Shown: positions 23,945 through 30,637 of the stretch, in pieces | How positions within the stretch are numbered: position 1 is the stretch's first letter | How the letters are laid out: each line of letters starts with the position of its first letter | From: Cerasicoccus sp. TK19100 | Lineage (GTDB): Bacteria; Verrucomicrobiota; Verrucomicrobiia; Opitutales; Cerasicoccaceae | NCBI RefSeq assembly: GCF_027257155.1 | Contig: NZ_JAPWDU010000006.1 | Location: 62,001 to 126,000, forward strand | Direction of reading: 5' to 3' | Length of the DNA stretch: 64,000 nucleotides | Notes under the pieces: model-generated | The model's database searches: none | The model's input: the letters and a program-made list of their open reading frames with translations, nothing else | What the model was told of the DNA's origin: nothing | Translations under genes and position numbers: made by a program

Positions 23945-26900
23945 CTACACCGTGCGCTTTTGCGAGGCGAGGATGAGGGAGTCGGTCAGTTCTTCCAGGG
24001 CGAGTGGCTTGGAAAGGTAGTCATTGGCACCGGCGTCGAGGCACTTTTTGCGATCGCCGGGGAGGGCGTTCGCGGTAACGGCGATAATGTGCGCGCCCGC
24101 AATTTGTTCGCCGTGCTTGCCGTCGCGGATGTCGCGGGTGATGTCCAGGCCGCTCTTACCGGGGAGCTGGATATCCATCAGCACGCAGTTGAACTTGTGC
24201 TCGGCAATTAACTTAACGGCCTCGTCTTCGTCGGCGGCGATTTTAAACGTGTAGCCCATGCCGTTGAGAATGTCGCGCGTGAGCTGTTGGTTCACCGGTT
24301 CGTCTTCCACGACGAGAATGGTGAGCGGCGCCAGCACGGCCAGCGGCGTGTTTTTCTGATTGGGCAATAGGGTGGGCTTGGGGGATGCGGCACCGCGGTT
24401 GAGGAAGACGTGGAAGGAGAAGGTCGAGCCCTTGCCGTCTTCGCTTTCGACGACGATGTCGCCGCCCATTTTTTCGACGAGGCGCTTGCTGATCACGAGG
24501 CCCAGGCCGGTGCCGCCAAACCTGCGCGTCGTGGAAGAGTCGGCCTGCGAGAAGGGCTGGAAAAGATTTTGCACCTTGTCTTTGGGGATCCCGACGCCGG
24601 TATCTTTGACCGCCACATCGACGCGGCAGCGACCCAACTGCTCGGTATCTTTAACTGCGACAATCACGTCCACGGAACCTTTTTCGGTGAACTTCACGGC
24701 ATTGTTGACGAGGTTGAGCAAAATCTGGCGCAGACGGTGCGAGTCCCCCAGAAATAGGTCCTCTGACTCGCCCTTGAATTCGTAATTGATCTTCACGCCC
24801 TTCTGGTTGGCCTTCACGAGGATGAGCTCCAGCGCCTCCATGACGGTTTGTTCGAGCGAGAACTCCTGATACTCCAGCTCGACGCCGCGGGATTCGATCT
24901 TGGAGTAGTCGAGGATGTTGTTAATTAACTCCAGCAGTGCTTTGCCGCTTCGGTTGACGATGGCCAGCCACTCGCGCTGCTGGTCGTCCACCTGGGTCTG
25001 CGCGAGCAAGTCGGTGTAGCCGAGGACGGCGTTCATCGGCGTGCGGATCTCGTGGCTCATCATGGCGAGGAATTCGCCCTTGGCCATGTTCGCACGGTCG
25101 GCATCTTCCTTGGCCTTGCGGAGTTGCTCCTCGCCGCGTCGGCTTTGGATAAAGCTGCCGAGGCTGCCGGCGGCCACGCTGAGGGAGGCGATTTCGGAGT
25201 CGTTCCAAGCCCGTGGGTTGTCGTCGCAAAGTTCAAACGCGCCCCAGAACTCACCGTCGACAAAGACCGGTGCGAGCAGCACGGATTTTATTTTCCGCTC
25301 GTTCATGAGCTCGGACATCTTGCCGGGAGTTGCGGCGGAGTGCTGCACGACCTCGCCATTGGCCAATCGGGTGGTCCACTCATCCGGGAGCTCATTCCAG
25401 TTCAGTGACGGGTCATTGTTGCGGGTGAGCTTGGCGAAGGGGGCATTGGTCCAGCGCCAGGGCGTGGCGTCGGTGGAGCGGCGTTGCTCGCGCTCGGGAT
25501 CACTGGCTACCAGACGAATGGAGTCTACCTGCGCATAGCGGCCAATGCAGTCCAGCGCGCTGCCGACTCCTTCGTTGAGATCCTTGCTGGCGAGTAAGGC
25601 GTTGGTCGCCTCCGCGACGCCTTGCAGCACGCGGTCGCGCAGTTCCAGGTCTTCCTGGGCGCGCTTGCGGGCGGTTATTTCATAGGCTACCCAGATGATG
25701 CCATCCAGCGTTTCCATCTCGGTATTTTCGCGCATGGGCGCGAGGCGACCTTCAAACCAGAATTCCTCGTTGTCGTGGCGCAGGGGGTATTCGATGCTTT
25801 CGGCCTCGCCGGTGCGGAGCACTTTGCTGATGGCGTCATGGAAGGCGGCGGCAAGATCAGCTTCCCAGAAGTCGGCAATGTGCTTGCCCTGCCAGGATTT
25901 AATATCCTGATAGGCCCCACTGCGCTGGGCGGCGAAGACTTCGAGGAACTTGCCGTTGGCCGAGACGATGAACGCCGCGTCGGGCAGGGCGTCAATAAAG
26001 GCCTGTAGGTGCTGTTCGTTGGACGCCGCTTTTTCCTCACTGCGGAGGACTTCGGTGATGATCGCAGCCAGGAAGAAAGTCGTTGCGCTGAGAATGCCCA
26101 CGAAGACCCAGATAAACTCGGGCGGTGTGGAAATATACTTCTGCGTCGGCCCCAGAACCTGGAGGATTTCCCAGATCGCCATGATCGCGATGATGACGAC
26201 ACCGGCCGTCGCGCCGCGTTGGCCGAAGCGAATGCCACCCCAGAAGACCACGGGAAACATCGCGAGCTCCAGCGGGTATTTCAGCGTGTCCGTCGGTGCC
26301 CAGCTGTCGAAGACGGCAAAGGCCAGGCCGAGCAAGACAATCAGCCAAATGAAGACTTCAAATATCTGCCGGTTGCGCCAGTTGATCTTCGTCCGGCCGG
26401 TCCAAACGAGGGCAAAGGGCGCCAGCACGAGGATGCCCACGGCTTCGGCAAGCCACCACGGTGTGAGCAGGCGGTTGAACTCAAACCACGGAATCTCGTC
26501 GACGTGCGCACAGAGAATCACGGAGGTCAGCGCCGCCAATAGCAGGCCGCACATGATCGGCCCCAGCGCGAGAAACACAAAGACATCCCGGATCGCCTCC
26601 ATCGCGTAGTCCTTGAGGAAGCGCCGCAGCATGTACGAGGTAAATCCGACGGAAATAGCGATGGCTACGCCGCGCTCGACGGCGAACAACCAGCCAAAGG
26701 GCAGGTTAAGGCCATGCCAGGCAATGGCGGTGGCGACAAACGCGCCCAGGTAAGAATAGCCGCCGCGCACCGTGATCGCCAGAGCGAACCCCGTCGCTGG
26801 CCATAGCAGAAAGACGCTGCTTTCGTTGATGGAATGCCCGATCGGCATCCACGCGCCAATCTCCATGAACAAAAGATAGCCCAATACGGCCGCAATGTGA

Positions 26901-26992
26901 CGCAATATCTGCATCCACCAGCTAACTTTTCGACTCGGGGGGTCCTCGGTTTGCGTGGCGAGGTCTTTTACCGCTGATACGGCTGTATCCAT
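23945..26992 (-). CDS. MASE1 hybrid sensor histidine kinase/response regulator
   Basis: About 1015 residues from the ATG at 26992. Order: MASE1 membrane sensor (about eight segments, residues 25-305), PAS (about 330-450), GAF (about 470-620), coiled coil, HisKA with MSHEIRTPMNAVLGY, HATPase_c (NAVKFTEKG, DTGVGIPKDK, GTGLGLVISKRLV), and a C-terminal receiver (VVEDEPVNQ, LMDIQLPG with the phosphoacceptor Asp, and YLSKPL). The signal sensed by MASE1 is unknown. A phosphorelay partner is not adjacent. An upstream TTG at 27031 is less likely as start. Confidence 0.93.
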   Translation of the reverse strand: MDTAVSAVKDLATQTEDPPSRKVSWWMQILRHIAAVLGYLLFMEIGAWMPIGHSINESSVFLLWPATGFALAITVRGGYSYLGAFVATAIAWHGLNLPFGWLFAVERGVAIAISVGFTSYMLRRFLKDYAMEAIRDVFVFLALGPIMCGLLLAALTSVILCAHVDEIPWFEFNRLLTPWWLAEAVGILVLAPFALVWTGRTKINWRNRQIFEVFIWLIVLLGLAFAVFDSWAPTDTLKYPLELAMFPVVFWGGIRFGQRGATAGVVIIAIMAIWEILQVLGPTQKYISTPPEFIWVFVGILSATTFFLAAIITEVLRSEEKAASNEQHLQAFIDALPDAAFIVSANGKFLEVFAAQRSGAYQDIKSWQGKHIADFWEADLAAAFHDAISKVLRTGEAESIEYPLRHDNEEFWFEGRLAPMRENTEMETLDGIIWVAYEITARKRAQEDLELRDRVLQGVAEATNALLASKDLNEGVGSALDCIGRYAQVDSIRLVASDPEREQRRSTDATPWRWTNAPFAKLTRNNDPSLNWNELPDEWTTRLANGEVVQHSAATPGKMSELMNERKIKSVLLAPVFVDGEFWGAFELCDDNPRAWNDSEIASLSVAAGSLGSFIQSRRGEEQLRKAKEDADRANMAKGEFLAMMSHEIRTPMNAVLGYTDLLAQTQVDDQQREWLAIVNRSGKALLELINNILDYSKIESRGVELEYQEFSLEQTVMEALELILVKANQKGVKINYEFKGESEDLFLGDSHRLRQILLNLVNNAVKFTEKGSVDVIVAVKDTEQLGRCRVDVAVKDTGVGIPKDKVQNLFQPFSQADSSTTRRFGGTGLGLVISKRLVEKMGGDIVVESEDGKGSTFSFHVFLNRGAASPKPTLLPNQKNTPLAVLAPLTILVVEDEPVNQQLTRDILNGMGYTFKIAADEDEAVKLIAEHKFNCVLMDIQLPGKSGLDITRDIRDGKHGEQIAGAHIIAVTANALPGDRKKCLDAGANDYLSKPLALEELTDSLILASQKRTV

Positions 26993-27146
26993 GATCTGAG
27001 TTTCGATTTCTGGGGGAAAATTACAAGCCAAGCAGCTTACTTTTTTCCATCCTTGGTTAATCGGGAATAAATGTTATCTGTTTCCAAGGTATTCCGGCGC
27101 TATTCCTGCTTGCGCCAAGCGGCCAAATTAGCGAAATAGATGACCC

Positions 27147-27458
27147 ATGCCGATTTACGTTTACCAGGTGATTAACGCGGATGGCAGCGAAGGCGAGATG
27201 TTTGAAGTCGAGCAGTCCATGTCCGACGCTCCACTGAAGCAGCACCCCCGCTCGGGCGAGCCCGTCCGCCGTGTTTTTCAACCACCCAATCTCGCCACCA
27301 AATACACTCCCGGTGCCACCAAGAGCAAGCTGGAGAATAAAAACGTGGAGCGCGCCGGCTTTACCAAATACGAGCGCGACAAATTGACTGGCACTTATCA
27401 TCGCACGGCTGGCGCGGATAAGCGAGCACCGGACACCATCAACCCCAGCCAACTCTAA
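27147..27458 (+). CDS. FmdB-like small protein lacking zinc cysteines
   Basis: A 103-residue protein beginning MPIYVYQVINADGSEGE, with EQSMSDAPL, HPRSGEPVRRVFQPP: the FmdB/zinc-ribbon regulatory pattern. The CxxC pairs that bind zinc in typical FmdB proteins are absent, so it is a metal-free variant. It precedes the pseudokinase fusion by 26 bases and is probably cotranscribed with it. Function unknown. Confidence 0.8.
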   Translation: MPIYVYQVINADGSEGEMFEVEQSMSDAPLKQHPRSGEPVRRVFQPPNLATKYTPGATKSKLENKNVERAGFTKYERDKLTGTYHRTAGADKRAPDTINPSQL

Positions 27459-27484
27459 CTGACCTGTTTCCTTAAGCTGCTATC

Positions 27485-30400
27485 ATGAGTGATGAATCGA
27501 CCGCCCCCAAGATGACGGCCCCCCCCGGTCGCGCCTACGAAGTCCTGACGCCCGGTGAAAAATTCGGGGATTACCAGGTGCTCCGTTGCGTGTCCTACGA
27601 CTTGCTGGGCAGCCTGTATCGCGTCCGCAAACCGCGTTCCAAGGACGAGAAGACGGTGTTCGTCATGCCGCCGATTATCAAGTCGGACCAAGAGTTTCAT
27701 GAGCGCTTTGCGCAGATGGGGCCCAAGCTCTGCAAGCTCGAGCACCCGAATGTTTTTTCCTTTGAAGAGGCTGTGGTGGTCAAGGACCGCTTTACCTTTA
27801 TGGGAAAGGAGTTCGACGGGGAAAACCTCGCCGACTACCTGCAAAACTACGTCAACAAGCAGATCAAAGAGCGAAAAAGCAATCAGGACGAGCCCCGCGA
27901 ACTCGTGTCGGACTTGCCTATGGGCCTGCCGGCGGACGACGTTACCTCGATCCTTAGCCAGACGCTTGAGGGCCTGGCCTACCTGGCTGACAAGAAAATC
28001 CAGCACTACAATCTCAACCCGACCAACATCCTTCGTGCCAAAAATGGCTCCATCAAGGTGGCCGGTTTCGGCCTGCTCAGCCTGATCGGGCAAGAGCGCT
28101 TTGAGGCAGTTGTCTCTGCCGGGATTCCGCCGATCGCCCTCGGCGGTCGCGCGATTCGCATCAACACGGTGGACATCCTTTCGCCCGAGGTCCGCCAGGG
28201 TAAACCCGCTGACGCCCGCTCCGATGTTTACGCCCTTGGCATCACCGCCTACTGGCTGCTCACTGGCCGCAAGCCGACCGCGGATTACGTGCCACCGAGC
28301 GAGGTGGTGCACGGGCTTAGTGAGAAGTGGGACATCTTTATCGCCAACTGCCTGGACCGCGAACCGGAGAAGCGCTACCAGAGTGTTAACAAGGCCAAGG
28401 ACGACTTTGAGAATTTCGAGAACATCCGGCCGCTGCGCAACAAGTCGCAGAAGGCGTCGATCGGCACCACCGACACGAAGACGGTTTTCCGGCACTTGGA
28501 TTTTATTCCCGTGCCGAAGAAGCTCCAGGAAAAGGGCACCAAGACTGCCAGCGCATTCCGACTGGCTGTGGTGGGGGTGGTGCTGCTGATTTTTGGCTCG
28601 TTGATCTTTTCGGCGATCAATGTCATGCTGGATGATTCCTTTCCCGATGGGGTGGTGGCGATTAAGACGCCCGACGGCCAGGAGCCGCGGCTGAGCTTTG
28701 CGCTGGAGCCCGATAACGTCGGGGTGAAAATCTCTGGCACGACACACAACTTCATCGTTCGCGATGGAAAGCTGGATCTGAATATCTTGCCGGGCTCGTA
28801 TCGCTTTGCCTTTACGGCACCGGGATTTGATTCCCACTCGGAGCTGATTCAGATCGATAAAGAACCGCTCCAGAAAACCATCAAGCTCAGGCCTGCCCTG
28901 GTGGATGCCGTGTTCGTCAGTGAGCCCAGCGTGACGCTGACCGCCGTGGACGCTAGCGGTAAAGAATTTCCATTGGGAGAAACGGACGCCAGCGGTCAGT
29001 TGGTGGCCAACCAGGTGATCGTCGCCGGTGACTACACGATGATCGCGGATAAGGCCGGCTATTCGCCGACCAAGTCTGGCCCCTACACGCTCTCCTCGAG
29101 AGAGGCCAACACGGTGCAGGTGCCGATCGAGGCCATCCTCGGTGTGCTCCGCGTGAAGTCCGATCCGTCCGGCGCGGATGTTTTCTACGGCGACCGCCAG
29201 CTTGGCAAAACGAACGTCACCCTGCAGGATCTGCCCGTCAACGAGGAGTTCCTGCTCACGGTCAAGCTGGATGGCTACCGCGACAAAACGCTCGCCGTCA
29301 CCGTGTTGCCGCAGACCAAGGATATTCTCGATTTCGGGACGCTCACGCCGCTCTCCGGTGAGATCGCGCCCGTGATCCTCTTTGGCGGCAAGGAGCCGAC
29401 ACCTGAGCAGTTGAAAAGCGTTAAGATAACGGGCGTCAGTAGAAACAGCCAACTGGGCGAGCAGACTTTTTCCGCCGACGCCAGCAGCATTGCCAACGGC
29501 CAGTTCCGCATCCAGGGAGTCCGTGAGGGCGAGGTGGAGATGACCGTTTCGCACCCGGATTATTATGACGTCAGTAAGACCTTCTCGTTAGGCAACAATG
29601 TCCGCGTAAAAGTGCCGTATGACATGGAGCCGCTGCCCGCGATTTTGACCTTGGCCCCCAAGCCGGCCAACGAAGATTGGGTCATCACGCTGGATGGCAA
29701 AAAGGTAAAGCTTCCCGAGATGCAGGCTCCGCTCAAGCCAGGCGTAAAACACACCCTTTCGATTGGCAGCAAAGACTACTTTGCCCAGAGCAAGAGCTTC
29801 ACGCCCAAGCCCAATGAAAAGATGAGCTGGGCACCGGAGATGGTGTTGATCCCCAGCCCGGAAAGTGGGCAAAACTACGAAGTGCCGTTCATCGACATGT
29901 CGCTGGTTTGGATCGCGCCCGGGTCGTTCTCCATGGGCAGCCCGCCCACCGAGCCGTCTCGCTTGCCCGAGGAAGGCCCCGTCACGCAGGTCCGCCTTAC
30001 GCGCGGTTACTGGATCGGCGCTCACGAAGTCACCCAGCAGCAGTATACGGATGTCATCGGTTTCAACCCCTCGCGTTTGCAGGGTAAAACCCGGCCGGTA
30101 GAGTACGTGAGCTGGAATGAAGCCATGGCCTATTGCCGCAAGCTCAACGAGCGCGAGCAGGAGGCAGGCCGCTTGCCTGCTGGTTATGAATACCGCCTGC
30201 CGACCGAGGCCGAGTGGGAATATGCCGCGCGCGCCGGGTCCACGGCTCCGTTCCACTGGGGTAATACCGCCACGGCAGAGAATGCACATTTCCAAGGGAC
30301 CTATCCGCGCGATTTCGAGTCCAGCGATGTCGACGCCGAGGACGACTACGGTGCCAAAGAAGTTGGCCAATATCAGCCCAATGCCTGGGGACTATACGAC

Positions 30401-30637
30401 GTCCATGGCAACGTCCGCGAGTGGTGCTTCGACGACTACAACGCCCGCCTGCCGGGCGACGAGGTCACGGACTGGGTCCGCCTGCAGGACGGCAGCCGCC
30501 ACCCTGTTCGCGGCGGTGGCTGGGAAGACTTCGCCATCCGTTCCCGCGCCGCTTCCCGCAGCGAGGGCCTCAGCGAAAACTTCCGCAACGCCAGCACCGG
30601 CTTCCGCGTCGTCCTCGCCCCCGCGATCGCGGAGTAG
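27485..30637 (+). CDS. membrane pseudokinase-PEGA-FGE-fold fusion protein
   Basis: A 1050-residue protein. Residues about 22-310 have a Ser/Thr kinase fold, but the catalytic loop reads HYNLNPTNIL instead of HRDLKPxNIL, DFG reads GFG, and the beta-3 Lys position is Met, so phosphotransfer is not expected. A single membrane segment lies near residues 357-380. Extracytoplasmic PEGA-like beta repeats follow (clear at 552-600, LRVKSDPSGADVFYG). Residues about 800-1045 are a formylglycine-generating-enzyme (SUMF1) fold: WIAPGSFSMGS, EVTQQQY, YRLPTEAEWEYAARAG, NVREWCFDDY, GFRVVL. The two catalytic Cys of true FGEs are replaced (WEDFAIRSRAASR), so this domain is probably for binding. Confidence 0.9.
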   Translation: MSDESTAPKMTAPPGRAYEVLTPGEKFGDYQVLRCVSYDLLGSLYRVRKPRSKDEKTVFVMPPIIKSDQEFHERFAQMGPKLCKLEHPNVFSFEEAVVVKDRFTFMGKEFDGENLADYLQNYVNKQIKERKSNQDEPRELVSDLPMGLPADDVTSILSQTLEGLAYLADKKIQHYNLNPTNILRAKNGSIKVAGFGLLSLIGQERFEAVVSAGIPPIALGGRAIRINTVDILSPEVRQGKPADARSDVYALGITAYWLLTGRKPTADYVPPSEVVHGLSEKWDIFIANCLDREPEKRYQSVNKAKDDFENFENIRPLRNKSQKASIGTTDTKTVFRHLDFIPVPKKLQEKGTKTASAFRLAVVGVVLLIFGSLIFSAINVMLDDSFPDGVVAIKTPDGQEPRLSFALEPDNVGVKISGTTHNFIVRDGKLDLNILPGSYRFAFTAPGFDSHSELIQIDKEPLQKTIKLRPALVDAVFVSEPSVTLTAVDASGKEFPLGETDASGQLVANQVIVAGDYTMIADKAGYSPTKSGPYTLSSREANTVQVPIEAILGVLRVKSDPSGADVFYGDRQLGKTNVTLQDLPVNEEFLLTVKLDGYRDKTLAVTVLPQTKDILDFGTLTPLSGEIAPVILFGGKEPTPEQLKSVKITGVSRNSQLGEQTFSADASSIANGQFRIQGVREGEVEMTVSHPDYYDVSKTFSLGNNVRVKVPYDMEPLPAILTLAPKPANEDWVITLDGKKVKLPEMQAPLKPGVKHTLSIGSKDYFAQSKSFTPKPNEKMSWAPEMVLIPSPESGQNYEVPFIDMSLVWIAPGSFSMGSPPTEPSRLPEEGPVTQVRLTRGYWIGAHEVTQQQYTDVIGFNPSRLQGKTRPVEYVSWNEAMAYCRKLNEREQEAGRLPAGYEYRLPTEAEWEYAARAGSTAPFHWGNTATAENAHFQGTYPRDFESSDVDAEDDYGAKEVGQYQPNAWGLYDVHGNVREWCFDDYNARLPGDEVTDWVRLQDGSRHPVRGGGWEDFAIRSRAASRSEGLSENFRNASTGFRVVLAPAIAE

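What the first reader, a model, noticed from the sequence alone, without database searches (positions are those of the whole stretch)
27485..30637. Membrane pseudokinase joined to PEGA repeats and a catalytically dead FGE fold
The kinase domain has HYN for HRD, Asn for the catalytic-loop Lys, GFG for DFG and no VAIK Lys, so all key catalytic residues are replaced. The C-terminal sulfatase-modifying-factor domain lacks both cysteines that true formylglycine-generating enzymes need. The protein thus links a cytoplasmic pseudokinase through a membrane segment to outside carbohydrate- or protein-binding domains: an apparently non-enzymatic transmembrane sensor or scaffold.
Basis: partly seen in the sequence, partly recalled or inferred. 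Interest (0 to 1): 0.75.

Follow-up and report, generated by a model that had tools for sequence, protein, structure and literature searches.

The report
Conserved dead-kinase membrane receptor family
A bacterial membrane protein keeps a protein-kinase shape that has lost its chemistry, joined through the membrane to outside domains, and among close relatives the dead kinase part is preserved about as strictly as a live one, so it probably works by binding partners rather than as an enzyme.

Summary
The ORF at 27485-30637(+), 1050 aa, has a kinase fold, one membrane helix, about five PEGA/carboxypeptidase-regulatory-like domains and a C-terminal FGE-like domain. It is not a lone mutant: I found 23 proteins of this layout, the window's included, all in one order. 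Beta3 Lys, catalytic-loop Lys and DFG Asp are absent in 23 of 23, the HRD Asp in 19 of 23. Fold-holding residues are kept in 22-23 of 23, and the activation segment is exactly 42 residues long in 23 of 23. The kinase domains form one supported clade apart from canonical kinases. Within the genus the dead domain changes as slowly as a live paralogue's kinase domain; in the one wider pair compared for both it changes faster. Correction: 'dead FGE' is doubtful, since the best-scoring solved relatives are not FGEs and three intact-kinase relatives lack the cysteine segment too. Best reading: a receptor-type pseudokinase, derived from an active receptor kinase, that works by binding. Neither partner nor ligand was identified. 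Kinases with this outside domain are described in Planctomycetota, and membrane pseudokinases in other phyla, so I file it as a new variant of a known kind.

The parts
27485..30637 (+). gene for the 1050-aa receptor-type pseudokinase
   Evidence: ORF; Pfam; relatives
27542..28438 (+). cytoplasmic pseudokinase domain, residues 20-318
   Evidence: Pfam Pkinase; AlphaFold2 pLDDT 87.4, pTM 0.88; VIA-align Z 24.6 to PknA, rmsd 3.3 over 249 residues
27659..27661 (+). F59 at the place of the ATP-binding beta3 Lys
   Evidence: alignment with 4 canonical rows
28004..28027 (+). HYNLNPTN in place of HRDxKPxN (residues 174-181)
28064..28072 (+). GFG in place of DFG (residues 194-196)
28064..28189 (+). altered activation segment, residues 194-235, 42 residues, with family-specific F206, E207, S211
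   Evidence: F206 22, E207 20, S211 22 of 23 family rows and 0 of 4 canonical rows; length 42 in 23 of 23
28490..28552 (+). conserved juxtamembrane segment with FIPVPK-like motif (residues 336-356)
   Evidence: P342, P344 nearly invariant in 18 rows
28562..28618 (+). single membrane helix, residues 360-378
   Evidence: hydropathy and flanking charge
28652..29869 (+). about five beta-sandwich domains (PEGA / CarboxypepD_reg-like), residues 390-795
   Evidence: Pfam PEGA and CarboxypepD_reg; strands of the model, block pLDDT 78-93; number and boundaries are my reading
29903..30613 (+). FGE-like (sulfatase-modifying-factor-like) domain without the cysteine pair, residues 807-1043
   Evidence: Pfam 161.6 bits; alignment with two Cys-bearing FGE proteins
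27147..27458 (+). upstream FmdB-like small protein; the window's copy has no Cys; same strand, ends 26 nt before the ATG; perhaps the same transcript
   Evidence: TIGR02605/PF09723 matches below cut-off; adjacent in 10 of 10 f1 genomes, gaps 26-94 nt

Best explanation
It is a receptor-type pseudokinase. SHOWN: the kinase fold lacks the residues for ATP binding and phosphotransfer; the loss is shared by 23 proteins in one clade; the fold-holding residues and the length of the activation segment are kept; within the genus the domain changes about as slowly as a live kinase domain in the same genomes; a canonical-kinase relative with the same overall layout exists. INFERRED: the outside beta-sandwich stack and the FGE-like tip bind a ligand or an envelope partner; this state is passed through the single helix; and the kinase-fold domain, with its family-specific activation segment, docks a cytoplasmic partner or dimerises. 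It would signal or scaffold by binding, not by chemistry, much as the pseudokinase domains of MviN and EssB/YukC do.
For: Beta3 Lys 0/23, catalytic-loop Lys 0/23, DFG Asp 0/23, alphaC Glu 1/23, HRD Asp 4/23, against APE Glu 22/23, alphaF Asp 22/23, alphaI Arg 23/23. DFG-to-APE segment 42 residues in 23 of 23, against 31-62 in the 7 canonical or stand-alone rows. Tree: pseudokinase rows on one side of a branch, support 100/99, in 100% of 200 bootstrap trees. dN of the dead domain over 6 pairs in the genus 0.071-0.146, against 0.092-0.146 for the live kinase domain of the 720-aa kinase-FGE paralogue. Pkinase, PEGA and FGE-sulfatase found in 18 of 18 aligned members at E 0.01. Canonical relatives: L166 with all the same domain kinds; L171 and L172 with a weaker middle part. 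Topology.
Against: No binding partner, ligand or phenotype is known. In the one wider pair compared for both (G000-G004) the dead domain changes faster than the live one (dN 0.413 against 0.241), and beyond family f1 it is less kept than the FGE-like domain. Neither neighbour gene is conserved across the family. The canonical kinase-FGE paralogue is full-length in only 6 of the 19 family-bearing genomes. The four f11 members keep the HRD Asp, so residual chemistry there is not excluded. Selection shows that something is needed, not what.
Confidence: 0.6

Rival explanations
1. The domain kept or gained a different nucleotide-dependent chemistry, as SelO (AMPylation) and SidJ (glutamylation) did.
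For: Such cases are known among pseudokinases (PMC12599244, section 4). N181 is kept in 10 of 23 rows, the HRD Asp in 4 of 23.
Against: The review's table shows SelO and SidJ keeping the ATP-binding Lys and the Asp of the DFG-like motif; here both are absent in 23 of 23.
Confidence: 0.1
2. It is an allosteric partner of a live receptor kinase (a HER3-like heterodimer).
For: The window's genome carries a canonical kinase-FGE protein of 720 aa. The 6 genomes with a full-length orthologue of it all carry the pseudokinase.
Against: 13 of the 19 family-bearing genomes lack a full-length orthologue (in G017 only the kinase part matches, in a 671-aa frame that also holds an FGE-like match). The stand-alone f11 kinase was seen in G041, G366 and G221, and in the 54 genomes only G041 has it at orthologue level. 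A different kinase could serve in each lineage.
Confidence: 0.12
3. It is mainly an envelope tether or adhesin; the kinase fold is only a plug or anchor on the inside.
For: In the 8 rows beyond family f1 the FGE-like domain is the better kept part (46-55% identity to the window, against 29-42% for the kinase domain).
Against: The kinase domain has the lowest dN of the five parts in 6 of 6 pairs in the genus and in both wider pairs; residues and length of the activation segment are fixed. A mere plug would not need these.
Confidence: 0.15
4. A decaying kinase gene (pseudogene on the way).
For: Loss of catalytic residues; one member (G011) has an in-frame TAA.
Against: 22 of 23 members are open; low dN in the genus; loss shared across 8 families of the order.
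Confidence: 0.02

Closest known systems
PVC-superphylum membrane Ser/Thr kinases with a periplasmic sulfatase-modifying-factor domain (PMC11032199 section 20; Chlamydia Pkn1 as kinase + FGE-sulfatase, PMC3581485 passage)
   Same: kinase inside, single membrane span, FGE-like domain outside (for Pkn1 only the two end domains are named in the passage)
   Different: all catalytic residues lost here; PEGA/CarboxypepD stack; a conserved clade found, as far as searched, in one order
MviN pseudokinase (ActPs3 family), mycobacteria
   Same: membrane-linked pseudokinase that lost all three catalytic motifs and recruits a protein (PMC12599244 section 8)
   Different: ActPs3 has a deletion in the activation loop and, in MviN, a multi-pass membrane part (the latter recalled); here the loop has a fixed length of 42, with one helix and PEGA/FGE outside
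EssB/YukC of type VII secretion
   Same: membrane pseudokinase with scaffolding role (PMC12599244 section 4)
   Different: attenuated activation loop there; no PEGA/FGE (recalled)
Chlamydial pseudokinase Pkn5
   Same: a pseudokinase widespread in another PVC phylum (PMC8242063 passage)
   Different: described there among type III effector proteins, not as a membrane receptor
PASTA kinases PknB/StkP
   Same: among the closest solved sequences and structures of the kinase domain; receptor-like topology
   Different: catalytically intact; PASTA (recalled) instead of PEGA/FGE
PvdO, GldK/PorK, TvpA
   Same: best-scoring solved relatives of the FGE-like domain
   Different: no kinase domain in those entries, as far as recalled; PvdO is named as an enzyme

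Membership tests
Protein kinase fold (PF00069) | sequence above Pfam cut-off and kinase fold | tested here: met
   63.7 bits, cut-off 31.7; 18 of 18 members match at E 0.01; model matches PknA/PknB/PknI
Active Ser/Thr kinase | beta3 Lys, HRD Asp and DFG Asp present | tested here: not met
   0/23, 4/23, 0/23
Pseudokinase (motif definition of PMC12599244) | one or more of the three catalytic residues missing | tested here: met
   all three missing in 19 of 23, two of three in 4 of 23
[quoted passage not shown]
   DFG-to-APE segment 42 residues in 23 of 23; 31, 44, 44 and 62 in the 4 canonical rows. No ActPs3 profile was at hand
GLW | GLW in place of HRD | tested here: not met
   His is kept at the first place in 22 of 23
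DLHK and CP1 | no transmembrane region | tested here: not met
   a strong hydrophobic segment after the kinase domain in 23 of 23; 5 of 23 have further weaker peaks
DYD | beta3 Arg, DYD motif | tested here: not met
   no Arg at the beta3 place in 23 rows; G, E, A or L at the first DFG place
ActPs1, ActPs2 | ActPs1: close to Act1, often a PQQ-related domain; ActPs2: a 250-aa activation-loop extension in about 90% | tested here: inconclusive
   no such extension and no such Pfam domain listed, but no ActPs1/2 profile was at hand
Formylglycine-generating enzyme | active-site cysteine pair (which cysteines: recalled) | tested here: not met
   segment missing in 18 of 18 rows; present in L197 and L199
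FGE-sulfatase domain superfamily (PF03781) | Pfam match above cut-off | tested here: met
   161.6 bits, cut-off 23.3; 18 of 18 members at E 0.01
PASTA kinase | PASTA domains outside | tested here: not met
   no PASTA family among the 10 Pfam families listed up to E 10
SelO/SidJ-type catalytic pseudokinase | other ATP-dependent transfer reaction | not testable with these tools
   the Lys and Asp that they keep are absent here

The most novel reading that the evidence does not exclude
A bacterial counterpart of receptor pseudokinases such as HER3 or ROR (compared from memory): an order-wide receptor in which a periplasmic FGE-like/PEGA stack senses an envelope state and passes it through a permanently catalysis-free kinase fold whose fixed-length, altered activation segment is the docking surface. 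It would have arisen by stepwise loss in an active receptor kinase, with the HRD Asp still present in one early branch.
Probability: 0.3. Interest if true: 0.65.

Novelty: new variant of a known kind. Interest (0 to 1): 0.45.

Why it matters
Few bacterial pseudokinases have a known role, and the 2025 review that I read in part (PMC12599244) has no occurrence of Verrucomicro*, Planctomycet*, PEGA or FGE in its main text. This family offers a natural series: a canonical receptor kinase of the same layout, members that keep the HRD Asp, and fully degenerate members under selection. That makes it possible to ask what a kinase fold is kept for once the chemistry is gone, and what the kinase-linked FGE-like domains of these bacteria bind.

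Tried and rejected
Lone-mutant or pseudogene reading: rejected.

Dead-FGE reading: softened. L166, L171 and L172 (intact kinases) lack an LCHxSYC-like segment too, as does L174 (by eye). Against my softening: true FGEs do match the domain (5nxl 58.9 bits, 6s07 57.6, against PvdO 75.6 and TvpA 64.7). In one search an entry named spore coat protein CotH also ranks second and one named ToxD kinase sixth.

Conserved partner gene: an FmdB-like gene lies just upstream in 10 of 10 f1 genomes; in G203 one lies 3.2 kb away on the other strand. A CoaC-like (phosphopantothenoylcysteine decarboxylase; named from memory of the sequence, no family search run) gene lies within 116 nt upstream in 6 of the other 13 genomes (G041, G100, G366, G221, G039, G011); in G047 it is 1794 nt away. 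Neither is family-wide, so both look like local neighbours.

Heterodimer with the 720-aa canonical kinase-FGE protein: full-length orthologue in 6 of 54 genomes searched, all 6 among the 19 family-bearing ones. Stand-alone f11 kinase as partner: only its source G041 at orthologue level, weaker matches in G017, G020, G027, G045.

FHA protein as reader of a phosphorylated pseudokinase (MviN model): the genome has one FHA match, in a protein that also looks cyclic-nucleotide-binding (by eye), and three other proteins over the Pkinase cut-off. No link was shown.

Named-genome search: the first scan found no relative; the second, with A1, used two FGE-type patterns and returned 80 loci. I read L053 and L055, which were multi-FGE proteins, not family members; the other 78 were not read.

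Viral fold library and metagenomes were not searched. In some searches at most 2 candidates per genome were scored and lists were cut, so absence outside the order is not proved. The full-length model is poor at 917-1037, so the FGE-like fold rests on sequence. EssB and MviN chains do not appear in the rows shown; that excludes nothing. Synonymous sites are near saturation (pS 0.58-0.81 for the dead domain in the genus), so dN is given and no dN/dS.

Paper searches. In what they listed I saw no report of this family; most subscription journals are not held.
Full report
WHAT IS THERE. The ORF at 27485-30637(+) is 1050 aa with an ATG start. Pfam finds Pkinase (63.7 bits), CarboxypepD_reg (46.2), PEGA (40.3) and FGE-sulfatase (161.6), each above its cut-off. 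The only hydrophobic 19-mer above the script's threshold is at 360-378, with net charge +4 in the 15 residues before and -3 after, so the kinase side is probably cytoplasmic. Across the family the strongest such segment follows the kinase domain in 23 of 23; 5 of 23 have further weaker peaks, and in L021 the charge after the helix is +4. The full-length AlphaFold2 model (mean pLDDT 74, pTM 0.37) is good for most of the kinase and the beta-sandwich parts and poor at 917-1037. The kinase domain alone gives pLDDT 87.4 and pTM 0.88. Its closest solved structures are PknI, PknB and PknA (Foldseek; VIA-align Z 24.6, rmsd 3.3 over 249 residues to PknA).

THE KINASE IS DEGENERATE ACROSS THE FAMILY. 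A search of 54 related genomes, own included, gave 19 with this layout: 10 of 10 genomes of the window's family f1, and G026, G017, G039, G036, G041, G047, G029, G014 and G011 (the last with one in-frame TAA). The profile search of 384 genomes of the class added G100, G366, G221 and G203: 23 in all, from 8 families. Against 4 canonical rows: beta3 Lys 0/23; alphaC Glu 1/23; HRD Asp 4/23 (G041, G100, G366, G221, all of f11); catalytic-loop Lys 0/23; DFG Asp 0/23. Fold-holding residues stay: APE Glu 22/23, alphaF Asp 22/23, alphaI Arg 23/23. Family-specific residues lie in the activation segment: F206 22/23, E207 20/23, S211 22/23, each 0 of 4 in the canonical rows. The segment from the DFG place to the APE Glu is exactly 42 residues in 23 of 23, against 31, 44, 44 and 62 in the canonical rows and 52 in three stand-alone kinases. 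In the kinase-domain model residues 203-212 are helical, with confidence falling along the stretch (block means 80, then 53; residues 214-224 under 50).

WHERE IT COMES FROM. In a tree of 43 kinase domains the 23 pseudokinase rows lie on one side of a branch with support 100/99, in 100% of 200 bootstrap trees; 17 rows labelled canonical and 3 stand-alone f11 kinases lie on the other. Several branches are long, so the inner order is unsure. In the drawn tree the two first branches are (G011 + f11; 86/74) and the rest (91/81); with f11 keeping the HRD Asp this fits loss of Lys and DFG Asp first and of HRD Asp later (inference). A canonical relative with all the same domain kinds is L166 (G203). 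L171 (G164) and L172 (G113) have kinase, one hydrophobic segment and FGE-like domain, but between them only a CarboxypepD_reg match at the cut-off (L171) or matches below cut-off (L172). In the phylum sample (387 genomes) matches over most of the profile occur only in the same order; three genomes outside the class match only in the kinase part. At most 2 candidates per genome were scored there and.

IT IS UNDER SELECTION. Within the window's genus (6 pairs) dN of the pseudokinase domain is 0.071-0.146, lowest of the five parts in 6 of 6 pairs; the outside stack is 0.230-0.382 and the FGE-like domain 0.136-0.216. The live kinase domain of the 720-aa kinase-FGE paralogue in the same genomes has 0.092-0.146. 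Against this: in the wider pair G000-G004 the dead domain has 0.413 and the live one 0.241, so over longer times the dead domain changes more. In the 8 rows beyond f1 the FGE-like domain is better kept (46-55% identity) than the kinase domain (29-42%).

THE OUTSIDE PART. Strands of the model suggest about five beta-sandwich domains at 390-795 (number and boundaries are my reading). At E 0.01, Pkinase, PEGA and FGE-sulfatase match in 18 of 18 aligned members, CarboxypepD_reg in 17. The FGE-like domain lacks the segment with the two cysteines in 18 of 18 rows, against two Cys-bearing FGE proteins, L197 and L199. The best-scoring solved sequences are PvdO, GldK/PorK and TvpA, with true FGEs below them. 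Three intact-kinase relatives lack the segment as well, so loss of the cysteines goes with being kinase-linked rather than with this protein. That the domain binds rather than catalyses is inference; PvdO is named as a dehydrogenase.

SURROUNDINGS. Just upstream, on the same strand and ending 26 nt before the ATG, lies an FmdB-like protein of 103 aa (27147-27458) that scores below the cut-offs of both zinc-ribbon models and has no Cys. It is adjacent in 10 of 10 f1 genomes, with gaps of 26-94 nt. Outside f1 a CoaC-like gene takes that place in 6 of 13 genomes. Beyond it in the window, on the other strand, is a MASE1/PAS/GAF hybrid histidine kinase (23945-27031). The genome has three other proteins over the Pkinase cut-off and one FHA match. 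One promoter-like site overlaps the gap at 27459-27486 (expected 0.1 in shuffles), so a transcript of its own is possible.

HOW IT MOST LIKELY WORKS. Shown: no catalytic residues, intact fold residues, fixed activation-segment length, selection in the genus. Inferred: a receptor that binds something outside with the beta-sandwich stack and the FGE-like tip and acts inside by docking or dimerising through the kinase fold. I give 0.6 to this and list rivals with their tests.

WHAT IS KNOWN. Section 20 of PMC11032199 (read whole) reports the sulfatase-modifying-factor domain as the third most abundant domain with Ser/Thr kinases in its set (Planctomycetota with Verrucomicrobiota and Chlamydiota outgroups), mostly periplasmic in single-span proteins; so the architecture is not new. 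A passage of PMC3581485 describes Chlamydia trachomatis Pkn1 as kinase plus FGE-sulfatase. A passage of PMC8242063 names Pkn5 a pseudokinase of chlamydiae. The review PMC12599244 (section 4 part 1 and sections 6, 8, 12 read; other passages by term search) describes the families ActPs1-3, GLW, CP1, DYD and DLHK and the examples MviN, EssB/YukC, SidJ and SelO. In what I read none has this combination, and the terms Verrucomicro*, Planctomycet*, PEGA and FGE do not occur in its main text. By tested features the protein does not belong to ActPs3, GLW, DYD, DLHK or CP1; ActPs1 and ActPs2 stay open.

LIMITS. The tools can test neither ATP binding nor partners. The CoaC name and the identity of the FGE active-site cysteines are recalled.

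Noticed in passing
window 27147-27458(+): FmdB-like small protein without the zinc-ribbon cysteines; next to the pseudokinase in 10 of 10 f1 genomes.
   Followed up: partly
L163:1299-2276, L164, L165 (family f11): Stand-alone kinases of about 330 aa with beta3 Lys kept but HAD/HAN for HRD, Glu for the DFG Asp and Ala for the alphaC Glu, with a long activation segment (52 residues): perhaps a second, half-degenerate kinase family.
   Followed up: partly
L204:801-4022 (+): One 1074-aa ORF with two kinase domains in tandem, then a hydrophobic segment and an FGE-like domain; the second kinase has HCD for HRD (by eye).
   Followed up: no
L022 (G011): A family member with an in-frame TAA in the outside stack; assembly error or real break not resolved.
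   Followed up: no
L174:1453-3612 (window's genome, contig C5): Canonical kinase and FGE-like protein of 720 aa in the same genome; its kinase domain is well kept while the linker and FGE-like domain change fast.
   Followed up: yes
L178 (window's genome, contig C2): Only FHA match found in the genome, in a protein that also looks cyclic-nucleotide-binding (by eye).
   Followed up: no
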